From positions 20,613 to 84,612 of the IMG/VR virus record IMGVR_UViG_3300028571_002036: 64,000 nt of DNA; one strand, given 5' to 3'. The translations under genes were made by a program, and so were the position numbers. Below, piece by piece: positions 2,893 to 51,284 of this stretch (position 1 is the stretch's first letter; every line of letters begins with the position of its first letter). Source of the DNA: a virus. Under the pieces are notes generated by a model. The model ran no database searches. It was not told where the DNA came from and saw only the letters and a program-made list of their open reading frames with translations.

Positions 2893-4381
2893 AATTTGGT
2901 TTTATGCCGTAGTAATTGATAACCAAGACCCCCTTAACTTGGGTAGAGTCAGAGCAAATCTGCTTACTGACGATGTCAGCGCTATCAAAAAAAGTTATGA
3001 TGGTTTTGGTCCTCAAGACTATTGGACAGCAAAAGACCCTTTTGTATTTAATTCACTCTTACCACTTTATGTTTGGACCGTACCGAAAGTTGATGAGTTA
3101 ATCCAAATTTATTATCACGAGCCAGAAACAACTCAGTTTCTCAACGCATACTACATCCAAGGACCTTTCAACAGGATACAGAATATAGTACAAGAAAACT
3201 TTAATGAATCTCAAAAGTACACCGATATCTCAGGGGTTCAAATCATTGGAGCTCAGAATTTAAGAAATCCTGATGGCACCTACAAAAATCCTGACCCTGA
3301 TGGAGTATTTCCTGACCCAGGTGATGTAGCCGTATTAGGTAGAGGTAGTACCGATATTATTTTCAAAGAACATACAACCCTTATAAGGGCTGGAAAATAT
3401 TCAGGTGAGTTAGTATCAAACCGAGACCCCAAAGGAAACAAGAACAGAGCATTTATTCAACTGAGCAAATTTCAGAACAAAACATCAATTGGGGATACTG
3501 TAAGACAAGCCGACATCGGTATTCAAAACTTACAGGTAAATTACCTTATAGAGTACGATATCAACAACCCTGAGAATACATTCAACCTTTTTAACGGAAC
3601 AATCCGTCTTTATAGACTCATACCCAACACAGCAACCACATCTCAGAATCTAAAGGTAGATTCCGATGTTGAACAATATAAGTTTATCAAAGCTTCTCAG
3701 AGTTTTAGTTTTTTAAATTTAGACAACACCATTAAATTTATTAATCAATTCATTAGTGATTGTAATAGTAAATTGAAAACCGAAACAGGAGTTGTATTGT
3801 TTAATGTATTGGATGAGAAATTCCCGATGTATTTTAGACCATCAAACAATTTCTACAACCAAATGAAAACCACATCACAGAATGTGATTAGACAAAACCT
3901 TACAACAATATTTTCAAAGGTTAAACTCATCCCCACCGATAAAGTGGGGGGTTATGGTTTGATATTTCAGCAAGGAAGAGTCGGAGACCCGATTAAAATT
4001 ACACCCAAGAGTTTTAGAAAAATCGAAACAAATGCGTTACCTGAAACCTATGGTTCATTCGGGGCACAACATGTTTACCTTCTTTCCCAACTTTCTCAAA
4101 TACCGGGAAAAGGAAAAATTAATTTTGACAATAGTCTCTACGGAATCGACGAACAAAAATTTTCATTAGAAATTGAACCTAACACCTCAAGTATGGTAAG
4201 GGGTGAAGAACTACTTCAACTACTTAATGTAATTGTAAGGTTCTTAGTTTCACACACCCACGGATTTCCTGGTGAACCCCCAATTTCAATTACCGAGGAC
4301 GGTTCAACTGTTGACAACCTTATCAGAGAACTCAATGACGCATATAATAAAGTACTGAATCAATATATTCGTTTGAATTGA
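2882..4381 (+). CDS. gp5-like baseplate hub/spike protein with OB-fold
   Basis: 499 residues. The start carries the signature of phage gp5/VgrG-type OB-folds: a beta strand (IWFYAVVIDNQDP) followed by LGRVRANL, where such proteins usually read 'DPxxLGRVRV'. The C-terminal region has the HTHGFPGEPP segment typical of gp5-type tail-spike proteins. No lysozyme catalytic segment is evident, so the lytic domain of T4 gp5 seems absent. In T4-like phages this protein forms the needle at the baseplate centre. Baseplate assignment is fairly secure, exact hub versus wedge role is not. Confidence 0.7.
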   Translation: MASRIWFYAVVIDNQDPLNLGRVRANLLTDDVSAIKKSYDGFGPQDYWTAKDPFVFNSLLPLYVWTVPKVDELIQIYYHEPETTQFLNAYYIQGPFNRIQNIVQENFNESQKYTDISGVQIIGAQNLRNPDGTYKNPDPDGVFPDPGDVAVLGRGSTDIIFKEHTTLIRAGKYSGELVSNRDPKGNKNRAFIQLSKFQNKTSIGDTVRQADIGIQNLQVNYLIEYDINNPENTFNLFNGTIRLYRLIPNTATTSQNLKVDSDVEQYKFIKASQSFSFLNLDNTIKFINQFISDCNSKLKTETGVVLFNVLDEKFPMYFRPSNNFYNQMKTTSQNVIRQNLTTIFSKVKLIPTDKVGGYGLIFQQGRVGDPIKITPKSFRKIETNALPETYGSFGAQHVYLLSQLSQIPGKGKINFDNSLYGIDEQKFSLEIEPNTSSMVRGEELLQLLNVIVRFLVSHTHGFPGEPPISITEDGSTVDNLIRELNDAYNKVLNQYIRLN

Positions 4382-14179: not shown

Positions 14180-17005
14180 TTAGGAATTTAACAACTTATC
14201 TAACTCGTCTTCTATTTTACCTAAACTTTGTTGTGCAATACCTAAATTTAAAAACTGATTACCATACAAACCAGTTTCTATCAAAATATTCATATCTTTA
14301 TTTTGTGTTGATTCTGGCGTAATTTCACCCTCTTCAGGGGTTGTTGCACCCAAGTCTGGTGTTTCACCAGCTAAGTCACCACCAAGGTCTCCACCAAGGT
14401 CCGCACCAACATCAAAACCACCACCACCAAACGCAGCAGCGGCTGGTTCAGAGGTTTCACCAGGAGGTGCTTGTGGCGCCCCTTCACCAGGTTTATTTCC
14501 ATACAACTTATCAAGTTGGTCAAACAATCCTGTTTTAGAGATTACTGTCGGAGTGTTTTTTAATTCCTCACCAATGGCTCTTTCCATTCTCTGTTGTAGA
14601 AGGTCAGTTCTGATTTCATCATCTGACCAATTGAAAATGTGTTTCTTAGCCCAAGTAGATGAAGCTGGTTGAATACCATTTCCGGGGTCTGAAACTAAAT
14701 CACGATACAAAAGAACTTTTTCTTTCCATATATCAACCTTCAGTAAGTCAGCTTGTGTTGATGGATTTGTAAGACCTAAAGTAAAATTAGAAATCTCTTC
14801 TTCAAAACCAAGTAGAAATAAATGGATAATTGCAACCTTATTAAGTTCTTGCAACATCGACTTTTGAATTCTATTAATGGTTCTCGCAAATCGGATATCC
14901 ATCAATGCTAAAGTTTTACCGTCACCGACAACTTCTTCAAAACCTAAAAAGGCCTTAGGAATTCTAAGTGCAGTAACAAGTTTTTTCTGAATGTATTCAA
15001 TGTCAGCAATCTCTGAAAGATTCTGTGCTCCAGGCAAAGTTTCAATTGGAGATGGTTGTGCTGGGTCTCTAACAGGAATAAAGAAATCTTGGTCTACAGC
15101 CATTTGGTTAAACCTCATATCAACATTGCCTGTTTTGGAATCAACAATTTGTTCCCTTTTGAACTTGTTAGCAACACGTTGTACATAAGCCTCGACATCA
15201 TCATCGTTCATGTTTCCAACATAAACTTTGAAAATTCTTCTTTCAGGGGCTCGTGAGGTACGATAAATTAACATCGCATCTTCAGATAACAAAAGTTGTT
15301 TCCAAATACGGCGAGATTTTTCCAACATTGAGGTACCATATGGGAGTTTTCTGTCGTCCCCTAATAATCTGAAGTGAGCAATTTCCCAAGTTTGAAATTC
15401 CATATTTTGGGTTTTCCAAGTAAACCTTAACCCTTTGTCTTCAGTATCATTTTTTGTGACACCAACCGATGCATTTCTTGTTGACAAACCTTGTTCAAAT
15501 CTCTCAATTTCGATGTTAGGTAGTTGTTGACATCCAACAACACCTTTTTCAGGGTCTAATCTCATATAAACGAAATTATCACCGTACTTACAGGTGTTTC
15601 TTGTCCACATGGGTAGATTAGTATTGATGTCTAAAGAATTATTAAATAAATCTGATAAAACGGATTTAATTCTTTTTGATTCAGAATAAATTTGAAGAAT
15701 TTGACCATCTTCGTTAGGTGTGGTAGATTCTTCAGCGTAGATATCTAAGGCCGCAGAAATTTCCGGAGTATTATGTGAAAAAATAGTGTCGGTGGCAAAA
15801 TTTTTATAACCAGGAACTGTCAAGTCATACACAGGAATAACACCATAAGGTTCAATAGATTCAATTTTGTGATTTAAATTGATTACATCACCTTTTGATT
15901 TTGCTGTGGAATATTTTGACTTTTCAATACCATAAGCATCTAAAAATGTTTGCCAATCAGAATATCCTGAATTAACAACTTCTCTTTGTATTTTTCTATA
16001 TGAAACATTTAATTTTGTTGCAGTTTTTTTAAGAGTTTTTTCACCTCTAGCAGCTTCAATAATATTGTCAAAACCAATTGTAAAATACGATGGATTGTTT
16101 ACACCAGAACGCTTACCATCCCAGGACATTTTACCTTTTCTTCTCGCAACCTCAGACATTTTTTCCCTGAATTTGGGATTAGACCATAATTTTTCGTTGT
16201 TCAATTTTGCATGATAAGCCCTATGTTCAGAGATTTTCATTATTTGAAGATTTTCTGGTTGATTATTTTTACCATTAAAATCAATATGATGAACTTCTTC
16301 GTCTTTTTCTATCGAAATGTCATAAAACCATTGTGCAATTAAATTATGTTCGGAAATCCAACCATTATGCCCTTCATTAGAATTACAGGTATAAATCCAA
16401 TTATACTTTTCATTATTGTAAAAAGATTTACGATAAAATGGCATCATTGAATCACCTTTTCGTAAATTCATCACTCTTTCAAAAGAACCATCCCGTTTCA
16501 TTAATTGATGTTCCCATGTTGCAATTATAAATGAACCATCATCAAAGGTGACTTTATATGTCATTTCATCCCTTGTGTAATGAGCATTTCTTGCTTTTGC
16601 TGGTACAACCTTTTTTAAATTGTGGTCATAAGAGTATGTTATAAATTCGTAGTTTATCCCTTTATCTGCAAGCTCCTTAATGGTAATAAATCCATCAGGC
16701 GTGGCTATTTTAGTATCACCATGAATACAATATTCCATAGATTCGTAATCGTAATACGAAGCCAAACGATTTGGTTCATAATATACGGCTTGAGTGTAGA
16801 GGTTATTTTCAACTTTAGCAAATTGATTTGCTAAATAAAATGATTGTTTGGCTTGAAGTTTTTCCCTTTCGTATTCAGTTTTATCAGTAGTTCTGAGTAA
16901 TTCCTTTTTATCTAACTTGTAAACAGGAAAATCTTGATTCATCAAGGCATTAGGACCCAAAGCCCTTGTTAACCTCTGCCAAACCGTTAAATTTCTATTT
17001 TTCAT
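14180..17005 (-). CDS. Portal vertex protein (T4 gp20-like) with in-frame intein
   Basis: 941 residues, of which residues 93-412 are an intein and the remaining 621 form the portal. The extein junction falls inside the conserved portal segment MEY/TPEISAALDIYAEEST. The later sequence (IEYIQKKLVTALRIPKAFLGFEE, GDGKTLALMDIRFARTI) is typical of gp20. The C-terminal tail is Gly/Pro/Ala-rich and acidic. The portal is the dodecameric DNA gate and nucleates prohead assembly. It lies directly downstream of the terminase, as in T4. A TATTTATA element lies 31 nt upstream of the ATG. Confidence 0.92.
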   Translation of the reverse strand: MKNRNLTVWQRLTRALGPNALMNQDFPVYKLDKKELLRTTDKTEYEREKLQAKQSFYLANQFAKVENNLYTQAVYYEPNRLASYYDYESMEYCIHGDTKIATPDGFITIKELADKGINYEFITYSYDHNLKKVVPAKARNAHYTRDEMTYKVTFDDGSFIIATWEHQLMKRDGSFERVMNLRKGDSMMPFYRKSFYNNEKYNWIYTCNSNEGHNGWISEHNLIAQWFYDISIEKDEEVHHIDFNGKNNQPENLQIMKISEHRAYHAKLNNEKLWSNPKFREKMSEVARRKGKMSWDGKRSGVNNPSYFTIGFDNIIEAARGEKTLKKTATKLNVSYRKIQREVVNSGYSDWQTFLDAYGIEKSKYSTAKSKGDVINLNHKIESIEPYGVIPVYDLTVPGYKNFATDTIFSHNTPEISAALDIYAEESTTPNEDGQILQIYSESKRIKSVLSDLFNNSLDINTNLPMWTRNTCKYGDNFVYMRLDPEKGVVGCQQLPNIEIERFEQGLSTRNASVGVTKNDTEDKGLRFTWKTQNMEFQTWEIAHFRLLGDDRKLPYGTSMLEKSRRIWKQLLLSEDAMLIYRTSRAPERRIFKVYVGNMNDDDVEAYVQRVANKFKREQIVDSKTGNVDMRFNQMAVDQDFFIPVRDPAQPSPIETLPGAQNLSEIADIEYIQKKLVTALRIPKAFLGFEEVVGDGKTLALMDIRFARTINRIQKSMLQELNKVAIIHLFLLGFEEEISNFTLGLTNPSTQADLLKVDIWKEKVLLYRDLVSDPGNGIQPASSTWAKKHIFNWSDDEIRTDLLQQRMERAIGEELKNTPTVISKTGLFDQLDKLYGNKPGEGAPQAPPGETSEPAAAAFGGGGFDVGADLGGDLGGDLAGETPDLGATTPEEGEITPESTQNKDMNILIETGLYGNQFLNLGIAQQSLGKIEDELDKLLNS
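15770..16729 (-). mobile_element. Mini-homing intein (HINT + HNH) in the portal gene
   Basis: 320 codons. Block A starts with the nucleophile Cys (CIHGDTKIATPDG). Block B holds TWEHQL. An HNH endonuclease lies in the middle (VHHIDFNGKNNQPENLQIM), followed by a helix-turn-helix-like segment (KTATKLNVSYRKIQREV). Block F is VYDLTVPGYKNFAT, and block G ends in His-Asn (FSHN) followed by Thr as the +1 residue. All splicing residues are present, so it should be active. Insertion in the most conserved part of an essential gene is typical of inteins. Confidence 0.93.
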
Positions 17006-25110: not shown

Positions 25111-27111
25111 ATGAACGACACATTAGGCGACGACGATAAGACACTCTCAAGGAAGAAACCTACCTCCGAATCGGGTACTCCCGTATTGGATAACTTTTCT
25201 CGTGACTTGAACAAATTGGCAGAACAAGGAAAACTTGACCCAGTGATAGGTCGGGAGAAAGAGATTATTCGTATTGCTCAAATCCTTTCCCGTAGAAAGA
25301 AGAACAACCCTATTATCTTGGGGGAACCAGGCTCAGGTAAAACCGCTTTGATTGAGGGATTGGCGTCTCTTATTATCAATGGAGAATGTCCCAAAAATCT
25401 TCTTGACAAGCGTATTGTCAATTTAGACCTCACCGCTGTGGTGGCAGGGACAAAGTATCGTGGTCAGTTCGAGGAGCGTCTAAAGGTTATCCTTGAGGAA
25501 CTCTCCAACAATCCCAACATCATTGTCTTTATCGATGAGATACACACATTGATTGGTTCAGGTAACTCAACAGGTAGTTTAGACGGTTCAAACATCTTTA
25601 AACCCGCACTTGCTCGTGGAGAAATTCAATGTATCGGTGCAACTACCTTGGATGAGTATCGTAAGTCATTTGAAAAAGACGGAGCTTTGGAGCGTAGATT
25701 CCAAAAGGTCATTGTAGACCCCTCATCAGTTGAGGAGACCATCCAAATTCTCACTCACATTAAAGACCGATACGAATCGTTCCACAAAGTGGCATACTCT
25801 CAAGAAGTAATCGAACTTTGTGTGAAGCTCGCAGACCGATATATCACCGACCGTGAGTTCCCCGACAAAGCCTTTGACATTTTGGATGAAGTTGGTGCTC
25901 GTAGTCAAACCGAGCAAAAGATTCCTGAAGTAATTGAAGAACTAAAACTCAAGGCTTCGGAAATCAAACAACAAAAGATGGATGTTGTAAAGAAACAGAA
26001 CTACGAAGAAGCGGCAGCACTAAGGGACAAGGAGCGTAAAATCCTTGCTAAACTCGAAGAGGAAAAGCGGAAATACGCGGAAGAATCCTCAACAACTCGT
26101 ATCCCTATCTCGGTGGAACAAGTCTACGATGTTGTTTCCAATATGACCAAAATTCCTGTGAGTAAAATGTCAGTTGACGATATTAACGCTCTTATTAATA
26201 TGGACAAATCCCTTATGGAAAAGGTAATTGGTCAAGACGATGCGGTGTCTATGATTGTCAAATCAATCCGTCGTAACCGAATCGGAATCAAAGACCCTAA
26301 CCGTCCTATTGGTTCATTTATCTTCTTGGGTTCAACAGGTGTGGGTAAGACCCACTTAGCAAAACAGATTGCTAAGGAGATGTTCGGGTCAGAGGATGCG
26401 TTGATTCGAGTCGACATGAGTGAATATCAAGAGAAGCACACACTGTCTCGTTTGGTGGGAGCACCCCCAGGATATGTCGGTTACGAAGAAGGTGGACAGC
26501 TTACCGAACAGGTAAAAAACAAACCATATGCGGTTATCCTATTCGATGAGGTTGAGAAAGCCCACAAGGACATTTTCTCTATTCTCCTTCAGATTCTTGA
26601 TGATGGTCACGCAACCGATTCCCTCGGTCGAAAAATCAACTTCAAGAACACCCTTATCATCATGACCACCAACCTCGGAGTCAAGAAACTTCAAGACTTT
26701 GGAGCTGGTATCGGGTTCTCCTCTAACAAGTACTCAAACGAGGAGGCTAAAAAACAAATCTTGATGAAGGAAATGAAGAACTTCTTTTCCCCCGAGTTCC
26801 TAAACCGTATCGATGACACCATTGTGTTCCAAACACTCACAAAGGAGAACATCGAGAAGATTGTAGGACTAGAACTTAGTAAACTCTCCAAGCGACTAGG
26901 TCACATGAAGTACAAAGTGGTGATGGACCCCACCCTCACAGAGTACATTGCAAAAGTCGGTTTCGATGATGAATACGGAGCTCGTCCAGTAAAACGAGCC
27001 ATCCAAGACAAAATCGAAGATTACCTATCGGAACTTATCCTAATAGGTAAACTTAAAGAAAATCGAAAATACACCCTAAAGGTGGTAAATGAAGAGGTGA
27101 AAATCTCTTAA
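25111..27111 (+). CDS. clpC: ClpC-type AAA+ unfoldase lacking the N-domain
   Basis: 666 residues against about 820-850 for cellular ClpC. First AAA+ module: Walker A GEPGSGKT (71-78), Walker B VFIDEIHT (139-146). A UVR motif lies in the middle domain (about 286-310). Second module: GSTGVGKT (407-414), ILFDEVEKAH (476-485), sensor regions and the C-terminal D2 domain. The tripeptide IGF (534-536) sits where ClpA/ClpC carry the ClpP-docking loop. The N-terminal Clp repeat domain is missing, so adaptor use should differ. The codons look less AT-rich than in nearby genes. It probably feeds the phage ClpP at 52082. Ends in a strong terminator. Confidence 0.92.
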   Translation: MNDTLGDDDKTLSRKKPTSESGTPVLDNFSRDLNKLAEQGKLDPVIGREKEIIRIAQILSRRKKNNPIILGEPGSGKTALIEGLASLIINGECPKNLLDKRIVNLDLTAVVAGTKYRGQFEERLKVILEELSNNPNIIVFIDEIHTLIGSGNSTGSLDGSNIFKPALARGEIQCIGATTLDEYRKSFEKDGALERRFQKVIVDPSSVEETIQILTHIKDRYESFHKVAYSQEVIELCVKLADRYITDREFPDKAFDILDEVGARSQTEQKIPEVIEELKLKASEIKQQKMDVVKKQNYEEAAALRDKERKILAKLEEEKRKYAEESSTTRIPISVEQVYDVVSNMTKIPVSKMSVDDINALINMDKSLMEKVIGQDDAVSMIVKSIRRNRIGIKDPNRPIGSFIFLGSTGVGKTHLAKQIAKEMFGSEDALIRVDMSEYQEKHTLSRLVGAPPGYVGYEEGGQLTEQVKNKPYAVILFDEVEKAHKDIFSILLQILDDGHATDSLGRKINFKNTLIIMTTNLGVKKLQDFGAGIGFSSNKYSNEEAKKQILMKEMKNFFSPEFLNRIDDTIVFQTLTKENIEKIVGLELSKLSKRLGHMKYKVVMDPTLTEYIAKVGFDDEYGARPVKRAIQDKIEDYLSELILIGKLKENRKYTLKVVNEEVKIS

Positions 27112-29842: not shown

Positions 29843-29977
29843 TAGAGTTCTTTGAAATATGGGGGTGAACGGTATTGATTGGCAGGGTTAATCATACGGG
29901 GCATGCAGTGAGATGTTTCCTATCACTTTAATCTATGGGAGTGCTTTTTAAGTGGCAACACTTTTGAAAAGCTTCAG

Positions 29978-30019
29978 GCTGTAGGTCTTCTTACAACTGA
30001 AGCGGTTACTGTAGCTTAG
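29978..30019 (+). other. tmRNA tag reading frame
   Basis: The frame that ends at TAG 30017-30019 in the helix-5 loop reads AVGLLTTEAVTVA from GCT 29978. The stop position fits tmRNA architecture, but the resume codon is inferred; GGT at 29984 would give an 11-residue tag. The tag ends in TVA rather than the usual LAA. Confidence 0.6.
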
Positions 30020-30249
30020 GCTATAATAACCGTGGGTCGATGGGGACATATACCTTGAAACAGAAGTCCTTATGGTGTGGTTTCTACCTTAAAAGAAATG
30101 GAGGTAATGTTTGGTGTTCTACCGATTTGAGTGAACACTCCACAGTTTCTGATGACGATGGCAAAATAGGAATCAGATATTTCGGAGGGTTAAACAAACC
30201 CTGACCTAAGCATGTAGTCCTTTATGGGTAAACTGAGCAAGACGTGGGT

Positions 30250-30443
30250 TAAAAATCGAGCCCCTTCATATCGTGAGATATGTCGAAAATCGGATGAATT
30301 CAGGGGAAGTCTTTCGGGATTATCCTGAGCCAAGCCTGGTAGGAATAGGAAGGTGCAGAGACTAGTGGGTGGTAGACGCTTCTACCGTAATACCACATTA
30401 GCGTCCGACATCTTGAAAAAGATGATGATATAGTCCACTTGTG
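30250..30443 (+). mobile_element. Group I intron in the tmRNA T-loop
   Basis: 194 nt without an ORF. The 5' exon ends in U and the intron in G, as required. P1: exon GGGT (30246-30249) with internal guide GCCC (30260-30263), U-G at the splice site. P10: TCGA (30256-30259) with 3' exon TCGA (30444-30447). P4: TCAGG (30300-30304) with CCTGA (30324-30328). P7: GACTA (30360-30364) with TAGTC (30431-30435). Conserved Q, R and S elements (CCTGAGCCAAGC, GTGCAGAGACTA, GATATAGTCC) are all present, so it should self-splice. Confidence 0.93.
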
Positions 30444-30477
30444 TCGAATCCCACCACCTCCACCGTGGACAAATTTG

Positions 30478-39949: not shown

Positions 39950-40111
39950 TGATGTTTTGTCAATTATAGAAAATCAATTTCATATTGTCAAATCGTTTAC
40001 CTTGAAAGAGTTGAATTTCCGACATTTTTTATCTGAGTTAAAAGTGTTTAGTAAACTTTTTTTTGTTACAATAAACCTCATTAGTTTATTGAGCAATTTT
40101 TAGTTTATTGT

Positions 40112-40183
40112 GACCCCGAGGCGATTCGAACGCCCGACTAGTATGTTAAGACACACTGCTCTACCATCTGAGCTACGGGGTCA
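40112..40183 (-). tRNA. tRNA with 6-nt anticodon loop (possible Lys CUU)
   Basis: Acceptor GACCCCG/CGGGGTC, D-arm GCTC/GAGC, T-arm GGGCG-TTCGAAT-CGCCT all fold. The anticodon arm is GTGTG-TCTTAA-CATAC: five pairs close a loop of 6, not 7. If U is position 33 the anticodon is CUU. Opening the last pair would give an 8-nt loop. Confidence 0.7.
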
Positions 40184-40261: not shown

Positions 40262-40500
40262 AAATTTAACAAAGTATAACCAAGATTCTGTATTTAATCT
40301 ATCATTAGTCTATTTGCCCCCACCTTACCCGACCAGCTCACCGTCGTGGGTTGTTTTGGGTTGCATCCTCGGTGGTAATGACGATATAAGGATGTGGACT
40401 TATAACTGACCATTATAAGTTTGTTCCCTTATATCTCCCACCTTAAGCGTGTGATGTCCTGAGTTTCCTCTCCTAAGAGCGACAGAACTTTGTTAAATTT
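40262..40500 (-). ncRNA. rnpB: RNase P RNA (compact, bacterial type)
   Basis: 239 nt. P1: 14 perfect pairs between the ends (plus-strand 40262-40275 with 40487-40500). P2: TCTGTC (40481-40486) with GATAGA (40298-40303). P3: a short CTC/GAG hairpin. P4: AAC-U-CAGGA (40457-40465) with TCTTGGTT (40478's partner at 40278-40285), leaving the conserved bulged U; P2 and P4 cross as in the RNase P pseudoknot. Conserved boxes GAGGAAA and AATGATAGA...ACAGAA...GGTTATA match bacterial RNase P. The central arm is reduced. This is the catalytic RNA that cuts tRNA and tmRNA leaders; no protein subunit gene is seen here. Confidence 0.9.
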
Positions 40501-40580
40501 TTTTTTTCAGGTTTAGGTTCAGGTTCTTCGGGTTTCGGTGGAACATTCCACATTTCATCCCAAAAGGTATATTCACTCAT
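40473..40580 (-). CDS. Small Pro/Glu/Lys protein overlapping rnpB
   Basis: 35 residues (MSEYTFWDEMWNVPPKPEEP start). Its ATG overlaps the stop of the upstream gene (ATGAGTGA), suggesting coupling, and its last 9 codons lie inside the RNase P RNA. It may be a true small ORF whose mRNA continues into rnpB. Confidence 0.45.
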   Translation of the reverse strand: MSEYTFWDEMWNVPPKPEEPEPKPEKKNLTKFCRS

Positions 40581-41163
40581 TGTTGTCAGGTTTAGAAAAT
40601 GTTTCTTCGGCTTTACCGCCAAATTTACTGTTGTTAAACAAATCATCATAGTCTTTGAATCCCCTTGTACGGGCATAATCATCGTTTTTCTTTCTACGAT
40701 ACTCCTTGATTTTTTCAGGGTCGCTCATCTCATCAGGGGTTTCAAAACCAAGTGATTTGGCACACTCGTTTTCACACCACTTATGAGAACCGATTTCAAT
40801 GTGAATTGGTAAATCGGTCTGTAGTGAATCAATGAACTCTTCGAATTGGTTTGCGGCAATGAACGGCATCGTGTAGATACCCTCATCAACAGCATATCCT
40901 GATTCGTCCTGACTGTCAAAGATTTCAACCCTTCCCATACGGTATTTTTCACCCATCAAAGAGAATACTCCATAACCAACGGTTGAATAATAAAACCTAC
41001 CAGGGTCACTAACACCATGAATATCAATACACCCTGGATTTTTTTCTATCCAAGTTCCAAGATGATTGGCAATGTCCGTATTGGTGAGTTTAATATTATC
41101 CTTCTCAGCATCGTGACGGATATTTGTTAAAAACCAAGCAAGTTTCTTTCTATCTATTTTCAT
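40573..41163 (-). CDS. Hypothetical phage protein
   Basis: 196 residues, alpha/beta, acidic, with a Cys pair (KWCENECAKSLGFETPDEM). No family recognised. A TATATTTG element lies 5 nt before the ATG. It heads the unit that runs into the small ORF and rnpB. Confidence 0.55.
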   Translation of the reverse strand: MKIDRKKLAWFLTNIRHDAEKDNIKLTNTDIANHLGTWIEKNPGCIDIHGVSDPGRFYYSTVGYGVFSLMGEKYRMGRVEIFDSQDESGYAVDEGIYTMPFIAANQFEEFIDSLQTDLPIHIEIGSHKWCENECAKSLGFETPDEMSDPEKIKEYRRKKNDDYARTRGFKDYDDLFNNSKFGGKAEETFSKPDNNE

Positions 41164-47748: not shown

Positions 47749-48009
47749 ATGAATACAAATAACCCACTCAGTCATCAAGATTTGATGAACGCCTCACTTT
47801 TGTTTTCCAAAGCACTCTCTTTAATTTTAGATGACAAACAAGGTATTGTTGTTGATATTGTCCCCGATTCAGGTGTTGACATGGGAGAAAACACAACCAA
47901 AGTTGTTATTTACCGTTTGGAAAATCAAATTCACGTGCAAAATTTAGAAATGGATATTGTTGAAGGAACTATAGTAGCTCTTAGTGATAAAGATAAAACT
48001 GAAAATTAA
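47749..48009 (+). CDS. Small hypothetical protein
   Basis: 86 residues, acidic, beta-rich (IVVDIVPDSGVDM...VVIYRLENQIHV). Between the HNH and carbamoyltransferase genes in one plus-strand unit. No family recognised. Confidence 0.5.
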   Translation: MNTNNPLSHQDLMNASLLFSKALSLILDDKQGIVVDIVPDSGVDMGENTTKVVIYRLENQIHVQNLEMDIVEGTIVALSDKDKTEN

Positions 48010-48016
48010 TAAAAAT

Positions 48017-49684
48017 ATGACAGTCTTAGGTTTCTCCGTTGGGCACGATAAAGGTGCTGTAATAATCAAAAATGGTCAAGTAATTGTTGGAATAACACAA
48101 GAAAGACTTACAAGAAGAAAACATGATGGAGCATTCACAGGTGGTGCAATTCCCGTGGAGTCTATTATGTATTGTCTTTCCGTATTGGATATTACCGTAG
48201 ATGATTTAGACCTCATTGTTTACAGTTCAACTGAATTGGTCGATAACACATACGAACTTTTCAATAAAATCTTCCAAGTACCAAAAAAGAAACTTGTGTT
48301 CATGCCTCATCATTTGGCTCACGCATATTCTTCTTTCTTTTCTTCAGGTTTCGATGAAGCTGCAGTTATTGTCGCAGATGCATCGGGTTCAATTTTAAAT
48401 CATAAAACTAAACTTGGTGAATGGTATCCTGAAAAATCACATGAAGGACTCAATGAGGGTGAAGATTGGACTGAAGGTATTTCTTTGTATCATTTTACCA
48501 GAAGTGGTCATAGTGAAGTTTACAAGAAATGGATAAAATATCCCGTGCCCCTTGAAAGTAATGATGGAGTGTCGTTAGGTACTATGTATTCACAGGGATG
48601 TTTACAATTGATATATGAACCCAACAGTAATGTTTGGCCGGCAGGTAAACTTATGGGATTAGCTTCATATGCAAATTCAGAATTTGTAAAGAATTTCCCT
48701 GAATACATAAAATATGAAAACGATGACATTCATATACCAAACGGTGGGATTCTTCCACATATTACTTGGAGAAATGATTTTCAAACTAAAGCTAATGTTG
48801 CAGGGGTTTATCAAAGAGAACAAGAAAAATCATCCCTGATATTGGCAGATATGATTAAAAAACTCACAAACTCAAATAATGTTTGTACTGCAGGGGGTTC
48901 CTTTTTAAATTGTAATTCTAATGAAATTATCATAAATTCAGGACTATTCGAAAATACATTTTTCGTCCCTCCAGCTGATGACAGTGGTATTCCTCTTGGA
49001 TGTGCGTGGTACGCATATCAACAAGTTGCTGAAATTCAACAAACATTTCCATTGTGGCCCTACTTTGGTAAAAAGTATTCAAATAGAGATGTTGAAGAAG
49101 CTACGAGTAAATTTCCAAACCTCCGAGTAGAATATTGGGATAATTTTGATGATATTGTTGAAACCATAACTGACAGACTTGTTGAAAATAAAGTTATCGG
49201 ATGGTTCCAAGGAGGTTCCGAAATTGGACCTAGAGCTTTGGGAAATCGTTCAATTATTGCGTCACCCACATCAAAATGGATGAAAGACAGAGTTAACCAT
49301 GACCATAAACATAGAGAATGGTATCGTCCTTTTGCACCTGCAGTAATTTTTGATTTACAGAAAGAAATATTCCAAACTGATTATTTTTCTCCATTTATGT
49401 TAGTTACCGCAACTGTTGCAGATGAATGGAAAGAAAGAATCCCTGCGGTAGTCCATATCGATGGGTCCGCAAGATTTCAATCTGTCACACCAAAAAGTAA
49501 TGAAAAGTTTTTCAAACTTATAAATAAATTTTACGAAAAAACTGGAATCCCTGTTTTGTTGAACACTAGCTACAATGGTGGTCACGAACCAATGATTGAA
49601 ACACCATTTGATGCTATTAAATCTTTTTTAGATTGTAATTTAGATTTTCTAATAGCTGAAAATTATATTATTAGTAAAAATTAA
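48017..49684 (+). CDS. Carbamoyltransferase (NodU/CmcH family), first copy
   Basis: 555 residues from the ATG at 48017, which starts the conserved MTVLGFSVGHDKGAVII strand. HHLAHAYSSFF (about 98) and the Asp/Gly-rich ATP-site segments (VADASG; GSFLNC) are present. The C-terminal domain has GWFQGGSEIGPRALGNRSI (carbamoyl-adenylate site) and VLLNTSYNGGHEP. The family transfers carbamoyl groups from carbamoyl phosphate to sugar or other hydroxyls. It is immediately followed by a divergent second copy. Confidence 0.88.
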   Translation: MTVLGFSVGHDKGAVIIKNGQVIVGITQERLTRRKHDGAFTGGAIPVESIMYCLSVLDITVDDLDLIVYSSTELVDNTYELFNKIFQVPKKKLVFMPHHLAHAYSSFFSSGFDEAAVIVADASGSILNHKTKLGEWYPEKSHEGLNEGEDWTEGISLYHFTRSGHSEVYKKWIKYPVPLESNDGVSLGTMYSQGCLQLIYEPNSNVWPAGKLMGLASYANSEFVKNFPEYIKYENDDIHIPNGGILPHITWRNDFQTKANVAGVYQREQEKSSLILADMIKKLTNSNNVCTAGGSFLNCNSNEIIINSGLFENTFFVPPADDSGIPLGCAWYAYQQVAEIQQTFPLWPYFGKKYSNRDVEEATSKFPNLRVEYWDNFDDIVETITDRLVENKVIGWFQGGSEIGPRALGNRSIIASPTSKWMKDRVNHDHKHREWYRPFAPAVIFDLQKEIFQTDYFSPFMLVTATVADEWKERIPAVVHIDGSARFQSVTPKSNEKFFKLINKFYEKTGIPVLLNTSYNGGHEPMIETPFDAIKSFLDCNLDFLIAENYIISKN

Positions 49685-49691
49685 TTTTATT

Positions 49692-51284
49692 ATGAGTGTA
49701 ATCTATGGTCTTTTCGCAGCTGGACATAGTCCATCAACAACTTTGATTGTTGACGGTGAAATAATACATGCAGTAGAAGAAGAGAGAATCAAACGAATTA
49801 AATCGGGAGAAGATTATGGGGCGTACCCCGATTTATCACTAAAGGCTGTCGAAGATAGAACTAATATAAAACTTAAAGATGCTGATTATGTGGTTTTTGC
49901 TGAGCCAGCACCACCGGTATATGCTAGGAGATTAACTAATGATAATTATTCTAAAGTGTCTCACCACCTTGCACATAATACCGCAGCTTATTTTACAAGT
50001 GGAATGGAAGGAAAAGTACTTTCAATTTCACATGATGGTGGTGGAGAATCTTCTTTTATGCGAGTCTATGTATGTGAGGATGGTAAGATGAATGAAGTTC
50101 ATCGATTATCCGGAACTAACTCTGGCAGTCTTTCACAACTCTGGGGATTTATAACAAATTGGATGATGGGTCGTAATTCAAATTGTAGGTTTGAATGGAT
50201 AATGTGTAAGGATGAAGGTAAGGTCATGGGAATGGCACCTGATGGTTATTACGATGAAAGAATCCAAAAAATTCTACATAGTATCCTATCATATAATGAT
50301 TTGAAATTTTATCCTTCGGGAACTGACCAAAAAACGAAGTTTGTTATGGAACGATTACTCGAAGAAGGTTTTTTTGACACTCTTAAAAAACGAGAAGTTT
50401 TCAGTTTTAATTTACAATACTTTACTGAAGAATTGATGTTGAGATTTATCGACGACCTACACAAGAGAATGCCCGACTACAAGAAACTCTGTTTTTCAGG
50501 TGGTCTTTTTGCAAATGTTAAACTGAACCAAAAAATAAATGAATTACCGTGGGTTGAAGAAATATACATTCTTCCTCCAATGGGTGATGAAGGGCTTTCT
50601 TTAGGCGCGGCAATTCATAAAGCAGTTGAATTAGGTGAAATTACAAAACCAATAAAACTTAAAAATGTATATTTTGGTTTTGATTATTCAGATGAAGAAG
50701 TTATAAACTTGGCTACAAAACATGATTTTTTAGTTAAAAAATATATTGTTGATGAAATTGCGACGGATTTAAATAAAGGTTTGATTATTGGATGGTTTCA
50801 AGGTAAAATGGAACTTGGACCACGTTCCTTGGGAGCAAGGAGTATTTTGGTAAGACCTACAGATTACAATACCCACGCAGAGTTAAATCGAAGATTGAAA
50901 AGATATGATACAATGCCTTTTGCACCAATGATAATGGGTGAGTTTTTTGAAACGGTTTTCCCGACCGCAAAATCCAAGTATGCCGCTCAGTTTATGACTT
51001 TAACATTTCCAACCCATGAACCATGGATTTATAAAATTCCCGCAGTAATTCAGAAATCGGATAAAACTGCCAGACCTCAGGTAGTGGAAAAAGAAAATCT
51101 TCCCAAAGTTTGGGAACTTATGAATTCGTACTACGAACTCTCAGGAATCCCATTACTACTTAACACCTCATTCAATGCTCATAACGAACCCATTATTGAG
51201 CACCCCGAAAATGCTTTTGTTCACCTTAAAAATAAAGTGATTGATAAATTAGTTATTGGAGATTATGTATACGAAAATAAATAA
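49692..51284 (+). CDS. Carbamoyltransferase (NodU/CmcH family), second copy
   Basis: 530 residues. The same motif order as its neighbour: GLFAAGHSPSTTLI start, SHHLAHNTAAYF, SHDGGGESS, GLFANVKLNQ, GWFQGKMELGPRSLGARSI and LLNTSFNAHNEP. The copies are clearly diverged, so this is not a recent duplication. They may act on different substrates or as a pair. Target unknown: surface glycan or modified nucleotide are both possible. Confidence 0.88.
   Translation: MSVIYGLFAAGHSPSTTLIVDGEIIHAVEEERIKRIKSGEDYGAYPDLSLKAVEDRTNIKLKDADYVVFAEPAPPVYARRLTNDNYSKVSHHLAHNTAAYFTSGMEGKVLSISHDGGGESSFMRVYVCEDGKMNEVHRLSGTNSGSLSQLWGFITNWMMGRNSNCRFEWIMCKDEGKVMGMAPDGYYDERIQKILHSILSYNDLKFYPSGTDQKTKFVMERLLEEGFFDTLKKREVFSFNLQYFTEELMLRFIDDLHKRMPDYKKLCFSGGLFANVKLNQKINELPWVEEIYILPPMGDEGLSLGAAIHKAVELGEITKPIKLKNVYFGFDYSDEEVINLATKHDFLVKKYIVDEIATDLNKGLIIGWFQGKMELGPRSLGARSILVRPTDYNTHAELNRRLKRYDTMPFAPMIMGEFFETVFPTAKSKYAAQFMTLTFPTHEPWIYKIPAVIQKSDKTARPQVVEKENLPKVWELMNSYYELSGIPLLLNTSFNAHNEPIIEHPENAFVHLKNKVIDKLVIGDYVYENK

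What the first reader, a model, noticed from the sequence alone, without database searches (positions are those of the whole stretch)
40262..40500. Phage-encoded RNase P RNA
A 239-nt minus-strand RNA has P1 (14 bp), P2, P3 and P4 with the conserved bulged U and the universal boxes GAGGAAA and ACAGAA, in the correct order. RNase P RNA is normally a cellular housekeeping gene. In a phage with many tRNAs and a tmRNA it suggests independent 5' processing of phage RNAs, or interference with the host enzyme. Its small size and reduced central arm are notable.
Basis: partly seen in the sequence, partly recalled or inferred. Interest (0 to 1): 0.92.

Follow-up and report, generated by a model that had tools for sequence, protein, structure and literature searches.

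The report
Miniature RNase P RNA in a phage
This phage carries its own shrunken copy of the RNA enzyme that cells use to trim the front end of transfer RNAs, and it belongs to a widespread, apparently undescribed set of such RNAs in large tRNA-carrying phages.

Summary
A 239-nt minus-strand RNA at 40262-40500 has every catalytic-domain element of bacterial RNase P RNA: P1 (14 bp), P2, a 3-bp P3, P4 with bulged U, P5, P6 pseudoknot, P7, P15 with a GGU loop, P17, CR-I, CR-IV and CR-V. Rfam misses it at its gathering cut-off, but permissive searches find it (35.7 and 34.1 bits). Pattern scans of viral contigs found dozens of relatives. A 22-sequence alignment shows 96% standard pairs and 108 two-sided changes (23.6 in shuffles). 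A model built from it finds the RNA in three 484-735 kb phages outside the alignment. The specificity domain is replaced by a plain hairpin (62 nt here, as little as 17 nt elsewhere). The gene lies beside tRNA genes on the same strand (35 of 53 mini loci; 1 of 147 control loci), and none of 33 records encodes RnpA. Most likely it is an active catalytic-domain-only RNase P RNA that borrows host RnpA to process phage tRNAs and tmRNA. Activity is inferred, not shown. No paper in the searched library describes a phage-encoded RNase P RNA.

The parts
40262..40500 (-). RNase P RNA gene (P1 to P1')
   Evidence: RF00010 35.7 bits E 4.4e-11; RF00373 34.1 bits; own model R1 145.5 bits, but the window is in its training set; coordinates
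40487..40500 (-). P1, 5' strand
   Evidence: 14 bp with 40262-40275; P1 beats 5000/5000 partner swaps in 52 RNAs
40262..40275 (-). P1, 3' strand
40481..40486 (-). P2, 5' strand (UCUGUC)
   Evidence: pairs with GAUAGA at 40298-40303; covaries
40470..40479 (-). P3 reduced to a 3-bp tetraloop hairpin CUC-UUAG-GAG
   Evidence: variants CUC-UACG-GAG and CUC-GAAA-GAG in relatives
40461..40470 (-). CR-I GAGGAAACUC
40457..40465 (-). P4, 5' strand with bulged U
   Evidence: 98.9% paired, 5 of 8 pairs with two-sided changes; sequences were pre-selected for P4 of at least 7/8
40453..40456 (-). P5, 5' strand (CAUC; 3' strand GAUG 40364-40367)
   Evidence: 100% paired, 4 of 4 pairs with two-sided changes
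40444..40448 (-). P6 pseudoknot, 5' strand (GCUUA); partner UGAGC inside L17
   Evidence: 95.5% paired across 22 RNAs
40438..40442 (-). P7, 5' strand (GGUGG; 3' strand CCACC 40371-40375)
   Evidence: 99.1% paired, 4 of 5 pairs with two-sided changes
40376..40437 (-). Remnant of the specificity domain: one 62-nt hairpin in place of P8-P14
   Evidence: 17-69 nt in relatives
40331..40345 (-). P17 hairpin, loop carries the P6 3' strand
   Evidence: 100% paired, all 3 pairs with two-sided changes
40316..40360 (-). P15/L15 with GGGUAAGGU (putative CCA-binding GGU)
   Evidence: L15-type GGU motif in 90% of 51 RNAs against 23% in shuffles
40302..40314 (-). CR-IV (AAUAGACUAAUGA)
   Evidence: motif in 80% of 51 RNAs against 2.5% in shuffles
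40277..40291 (-). CR-V and P4 3' strand (ACAGAAUCUUGGUUA)
40110..40182 (-). tRNA gene directly downstream, same strand, unusual 8-nt anticodon loop (CUUA)
   Evidence: ARAGORN, RF00005 48.4 bits
39873..39949 (-). tRNA-Met with encoded CCA, same strand
29861..30464 (+). tmRNA gene split by a group I intron (30250-30443); possible further substrate
   Evidence: ARAGORN on joined exons; RF00028 75.1 bits

Best explanation
The RNA is a phage-encoded bacterial-type RNase P RNA cut down to its catalytic domain. Shown here: the sequence and pairing architecture, the covariation, the loss of the specificity domain, the linkage to tRNA genes and the lack of a phage RnpA in the records held. Inferred: it is transcribed along with phage tRNAs, folds, binds the host protein RnpA and cleaves the 5' leaders of phage pre-tRNAs (and probably of the phage pre-tmRNA). 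The GGU in L15 would pair with the CCA end of the substrate. Because the domain that reads the tRNA T-loop is gone, substrate choice would rest on the acceptor stem, the CCA and RnpA contacts with the leader, which might let it accept phage tRNAs of unusual shape.
For: Identity: RF00010 and RF00373 sub-threshold hits. 22-sequence alignment with 96.0% standard pairs against 77.6% shuffled, and 108 two-sided changes against 23.6, including the P6 pseudoknot. P1, P2, P3, P5, P6 and P7 beat 5000 of 5000 partner swaps over 52 RNAs. Model R1 finds it in 595, 735 and 484 kb phages outside the training set (115, 96.5 and 77.8 bits). Activity: P4, bulged U, CR-I, CR-IV, CR-V and the L15 GGU motif are kept. 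Substrate: same-strand tRNA within 1 kb in 35 of 53 mini loci against 1 of 147 false-positive loci (Fisher p 1e-24). Protein from the host: no RnpA in 33 records up to 416 kb. The C-domain alone can cleave pre-tRNA with or without RnpA, at lower rate and affinity (PMC4919922).
Against: No transcript or activity data. Host bacteria already have RNase P, so the benefit is unclear. Nearest sequenced cultured relatives of the window phage show no hit (strict filters). Some RNA-bearing loci have no tRNA within 1 kb (18 of 53). Huge-phage copies deviate in CR-I and CR-V (GAGGAAG, ACAGGA), which could mean altered activity. The RnpA-negative records may be fragments.
Confidence: 0.72

Rival explanations
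1. A decoy: the phage RNA binds host RnpA, starves host RNase P and so shuts down host tRNA supply.
For: The RnpA-binding part (C-domain) is kept and no phage RnpA is present; the substrate-recognition domain is lost.
Against: A decoy needs neither the P4 metal site, the L15 GGU motif nor tRNA linkage, yet all are kept. Shutting down tRNA processing would also hit the phage tRNAs.
Confidence: 0.12
2. An RNase P RNA with new substrates: with the T-loop reader gone it mainly cleaves other phage transcripts or odd tRNA-like RNAs.
For: Loss of the S-domain; 18 of 53 mini loci have no tRNA within 1 kb.
Against: Most loci are next to tRNA genes on the same strand; L15 GGU is kept, pointing to CCA-ended substrates.
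Confidence: 0.1
3. A decaying copy of a host gene, or bacterial DNA in the contig.
For: RNase P RNA is normally cellular; Rfam gathering scores are not reached; L079 seems to have lost the P1/P2 5' strand.
Against: Compensatory changes across many phages; the same contig has head, portal and terminase genes; found in three huge phages outside the training set.
Confidence: 0.03

Closest known systems
Bacterial type A RNase P RNA (RF00010; E. coli M1 RNA)
   Same: C-domain order and motifs: P1, P2, P4 with bulged U, P5, P6 pseudoknot with L17, P15 with GGU loop, CR-I, CR-IV, CR-V
   Different: 239 nt instead of 340-420; P3 a 3-bp hairpin; S-domain with CR-II/CR-III replaced by one hairpin; P18 absent in this copy; phage-encoded, beside tRNA genes, without rnpA
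Pyrobaculum minimal RNase P RNA (type T, also called type P; RF02357)
   Same: Catalytic domain only, nearly the whole specificity domain lost (PMC4919922)
   Different: That one is archaeal and cellular and works with archaeal proteins; the phage RNA keeps the bacterial P6 pseudoknot and an L15 GGU
Diverged RNase P RNAs of CPR bacteria (PMC8172020)
   Same: Missing helices, below Rfam thresholds; a Dojkabacteria copy scores 39.7 bits with R1
   Different: Cellular; much weaker match to the phage model than the related phage RNAs
Theta ribozymes of gut phages (PMC10879173)
   Same: Phage-encoded catalytic RNAs beside phage tRNA genes
   Different: HDV-like self-cleavers proposed for tRNA 3' trailers; the RNA here is an RNase P homologue, expected to act in trans on 5' ends

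Membership tests
RNase P RNA (bacterial type) | P4 helix with bulged U and CR-I/CR-V nucleotides | tested here: met
RNase P RNA (bacterial type) | P1, P2, P3, P5, P7 in the canonical order, with covariation | tested here: met
RNase P RNA (bacterial type) | CR-IV motif | tested here: met
   (80% against 2.5% shuffled)
Bacterial type A RNase P RNA | P6 pseudoknot between the P5-P7 joint and L17 | tested here: met
   helix 3, 95.5% paired
Bacterial type A RNase P RNA | P15/L15 with GGU for CCA binding | tested here: met
   motif test; the exact L15 register in the window is by eye; P15 only 72.9% paired in the alignment, partly misaligned
Bacterial type A RNase P RNA | Specificity domain P8-P14 with CR-II and CR-III | tested here: not met
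   62-nt plain hairpin in its place
Rfam RF00010 / RF00373 | Score at or above gathering cut-off | tested here: not met
   35.7 of 100 bits and 34.1 of 84 bits
RNase P holoenzyme | RnpA protein encoded alongside | tested here: not met
   No PF00825 in 33 phage records, all possibly fragments; it would come from the host
RNase P RNA | Cleaves pre-tRNA 5' leaders | not testable with these tools
   needs biochemistry
Pyrobaculum type T RNase P RNA (RF02357) | Match to RF02357 | tested here: inconclusive
   Not among matches with E up to 10, but only the best family of a clan is listed

The most novel reading that the evidence does not exclude
Large tRNA-carrying phages widely encode a distinct class of S-domain-less RNase P RNA that captures host RnpA and builds a phage-specific RNase P with relaxed or changed substrate choice, devoted to phage tRNAs and tmRNA. 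It would be the first virus-encoded RNase P described and a natural bacterial-type catalytic-domain-only ribozyme.
Probability: 0.5. Interest if true: 0.92.

Novelty: new variant of a known kind. Interest (0 to 1): 0.87.

Why it matters
RNase P RNA is treated as a cellular housekeeping ribozyme; searches of about 5.4 million open papers found no report of a phage-encoded one. If active, it shows phages bringing their own catalytic RNA for translation, extends the known translation kit of huge phages, and gives natural catalytic-domain-only bacterial-type RNase P RNAs (CR-I to CR-V core as short as 146 nt) for testing what the specificity domain is for. It also exposes a blind spot: default Rfam cut-offs do not report this RNA, so it can go unannotated.

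Tried and rejected
Rfam gathering scan: no RNase P hit, explained by large deletions. BLAST of the RNA and three relatives against 50,697 phage records: no significant annotated homologue (the one full-size relative matched two unannotated fecal phage records); one weak hit (Clostridioides phage pCD1602_4, L381) gave no RNase P features or Rfam match and is taken as chance, another led to the 735-kb phage and was real. Rfam RF00010/RF00373 on 12 named phages found nothing, but those strict filters also missed the copies that R1 finds. The overlapping small ORF at 40473-40682 was rejected as a coding explanation: in the close relative L072 a TAA ends the upstream frame before the RNA (read by eye). 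Near-identical full-size copies with a 288-nt core (L275 and others; L275 has no tRNA in its locus) may be bacterial flanks and are left out of the argument.

Full report
The element. The minus strand at 40262-40500 reads as one 239-nt RNA closed by a perfect 14-bp P1. Inside, in the order of bacterial RNase P RNA: P2 (UCUGUC/GAUAGA), a minimal P3 (CUC-UUAG-GAG), CR-I GAGGAAACUC, P4 with a bulged U (AAC-U-CAGGA/UCUUGGUU), P5 (CAUC/GAUG), the 5' strand of P6, P7 (GGUGG/CCACC), a 62-nt hairpin, P15 with a GGGUAAGGU loop, P17 whose loop holds the P6 partner, CR-IV (AAUAGACUAAUGA) and CR-V (ACAGAAUCUUGGUUA). The MFE of the whole is 3.7 sd below dinucleotide shuffles.

Statistics in the window. A pattern of CR-I and CR-V at this spacing occurs once and in none of 100 shuffles. 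Rfam at gathering cut-offs reports no RNase P. RF00010 scored on the whole record gives a single hit at this place, 35.7 bits, E 4.4e-11, and a permissive scan of the stretch gives RF00373 with 34.1 bits, E 1.9e-8. The gap to the cut-offs (100 and 84) is what the missing specificity domain would produce.

Relatives. Four pattern scans of IMG/VR with different spacing gave 130 loci whose P4 pairs at 7 or 8 of 8 positions, well apart from a chance background mostly at 2-6. They range from a 146-nt core to full bacterial size. Mini-class contigs reach 416, 373 and 343 kb. Selection by P4 biases P4 itself, so the other helices were tested: in 52 non-redundant mini RNAs, P1, P2, P3, P5, P6 and P7 pair better with their own partner than in any of 5000 partner swaps. 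On a 22-sequence alignment, 96.0% of cells pair (77.6% shuffled, 29-47% when slid), with 108 two-sided changes against 23.6; P5, P7, P17 and the P6 pseudoknot all carry compensatory changes. The structure was drawn on this alignment, so the slid control favours it somewhat. Model R1 built from it then found the RNA in three huge phages outside the training set: LR756511 (595 kb, 115 bits), LR756501 (735 kb, 96.5 bits) and LR756508 (484 kb, 77.8 bits), while the false-positive loci scored at most 18.8 bits. I take these records to be from the huge-phage study PMC7162821 (not checked); its main text does not mention RNase P.

What was lost. Between the P7 strands the window has 62 nt, and relatives 17-69 nt, against a domain that makes up about 40% of a 340-420-nt bacterial RNA (PMC4919922). 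CR-II and CR-III, which contact the D and T loops of tRNA, have no counterpart that I can see. P3 is reduced and P18 is absent here, though some relatives have it.

What was kept. The active-site helix, CR-I, CR-IV (80% against 2.5% shuffled) and an L15-type GGU motif (90% against 23%) are conserved. These are the parts for chemistry, for RnpA and for the CCA end of the substrate.

Context. The record is a phage: T4-like portal, major head protein and terminase, nearest to Flavobacterium phage immuto, Microcystis phage Mel-JY01 and huge phages; a Bacteroidota host is plausible but not shown. A tRNA gene begins about 80 nt downstream on the same strand, then tRNA-Met with encoded CCA. Over the family, 35 of 53 mini loci, 20 of 23 mid-size and 20 of 30 full-size loci have a same-strand tRNA within 1 kb, against 1 of 147 false-positive loci from the same scans (Fisher p 1e-24 for mini). 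RnpA (PF00825) is absent from the window record and from 32 relatives, though all may be incomplete.

The tmRNA. It is there: the group I intron at 30250-30443 sits in the T-loop, and the joined exons are read as a tmRNA at 29861-30464 with tag GNTFEKLQAVGLLTTEAVTVA. Since RNase P also matures pre-tmRNA (PMC4919922), this is a second candidate substrate.

Mechanism. The kept and lost parts, the tRNA neighbours and the lack of RnpA fit an RNA that joins host RnpA and trims phage pre-tRNAs and pre-tmRNA. The catalytic domain alone is known to cleave with reduced rate and affinity (PMC4919922). A decoy that ties up RnpA is possible but does not explain conservation of the catalytic and CCA-binding parts. 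None of this has been tested biochemically here.

Novelty. Ten searches of an open-access library of 5.39 million papers, and term searches in two RNase P reviews, found no phage-encoded RNase P RNA. Most subscription papers are not covered, so priority is not certain. As a molecule it is a member of a known ribozyme family by the C-domain tests; as a catalytic-domain-only, phage-borne form it is a new variant.

Noticed in passing
window 29861-30464 (+), intron 30250-30443: tmRNA gene interrupted in its T-loop by a 194-nt group I intron; hidden from ARAGORN and Rfam until the exons are joined. A 27-nt piece of the intron also occurs in locus L041.
   Followed up: partly
window 14180-17005 (-): Portal protein (PF07230) carries an in-frame intein with HNH endonuclease (PF14890, PF13392).
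   Followed up: partly
window 40110-40182 (-): tRNA with an 8-nt anticodon loop read as CUUA by ARAGORN; could read UAAG or a stop codon.
   Followed up: no
window 39963-39991 (-): Perfect 12/12 sigma-70 promoter match just upstream of tRNA-Met.
   Followed up: no
window 47984-51284 (+): Two tandem Nol-like carbamoyltransferase genes (phrog_1601).
   Followed up: no
window 25111-27111 (+): ClpA/B-like AAA+ ATPase (phrog_4871, E 1.7e-237).
   Followed up: no
L382 about 2948-3130 (735-kb phage LR756501) and L514 (595-kb phage LR756511): Copies of the RNA with changed 'universal' bases (GAGGAAG in CR-I; ACAGGA in CR-V of LR756501).
   Followed up: partly
L275, L277, L302, L310, L317, L333, L342, L346: Near-identical full-size RNase P RNAs on short viral contigs, several from isolates; may be bacterial flanks or an integration site at rnpB.
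   Followed up: no
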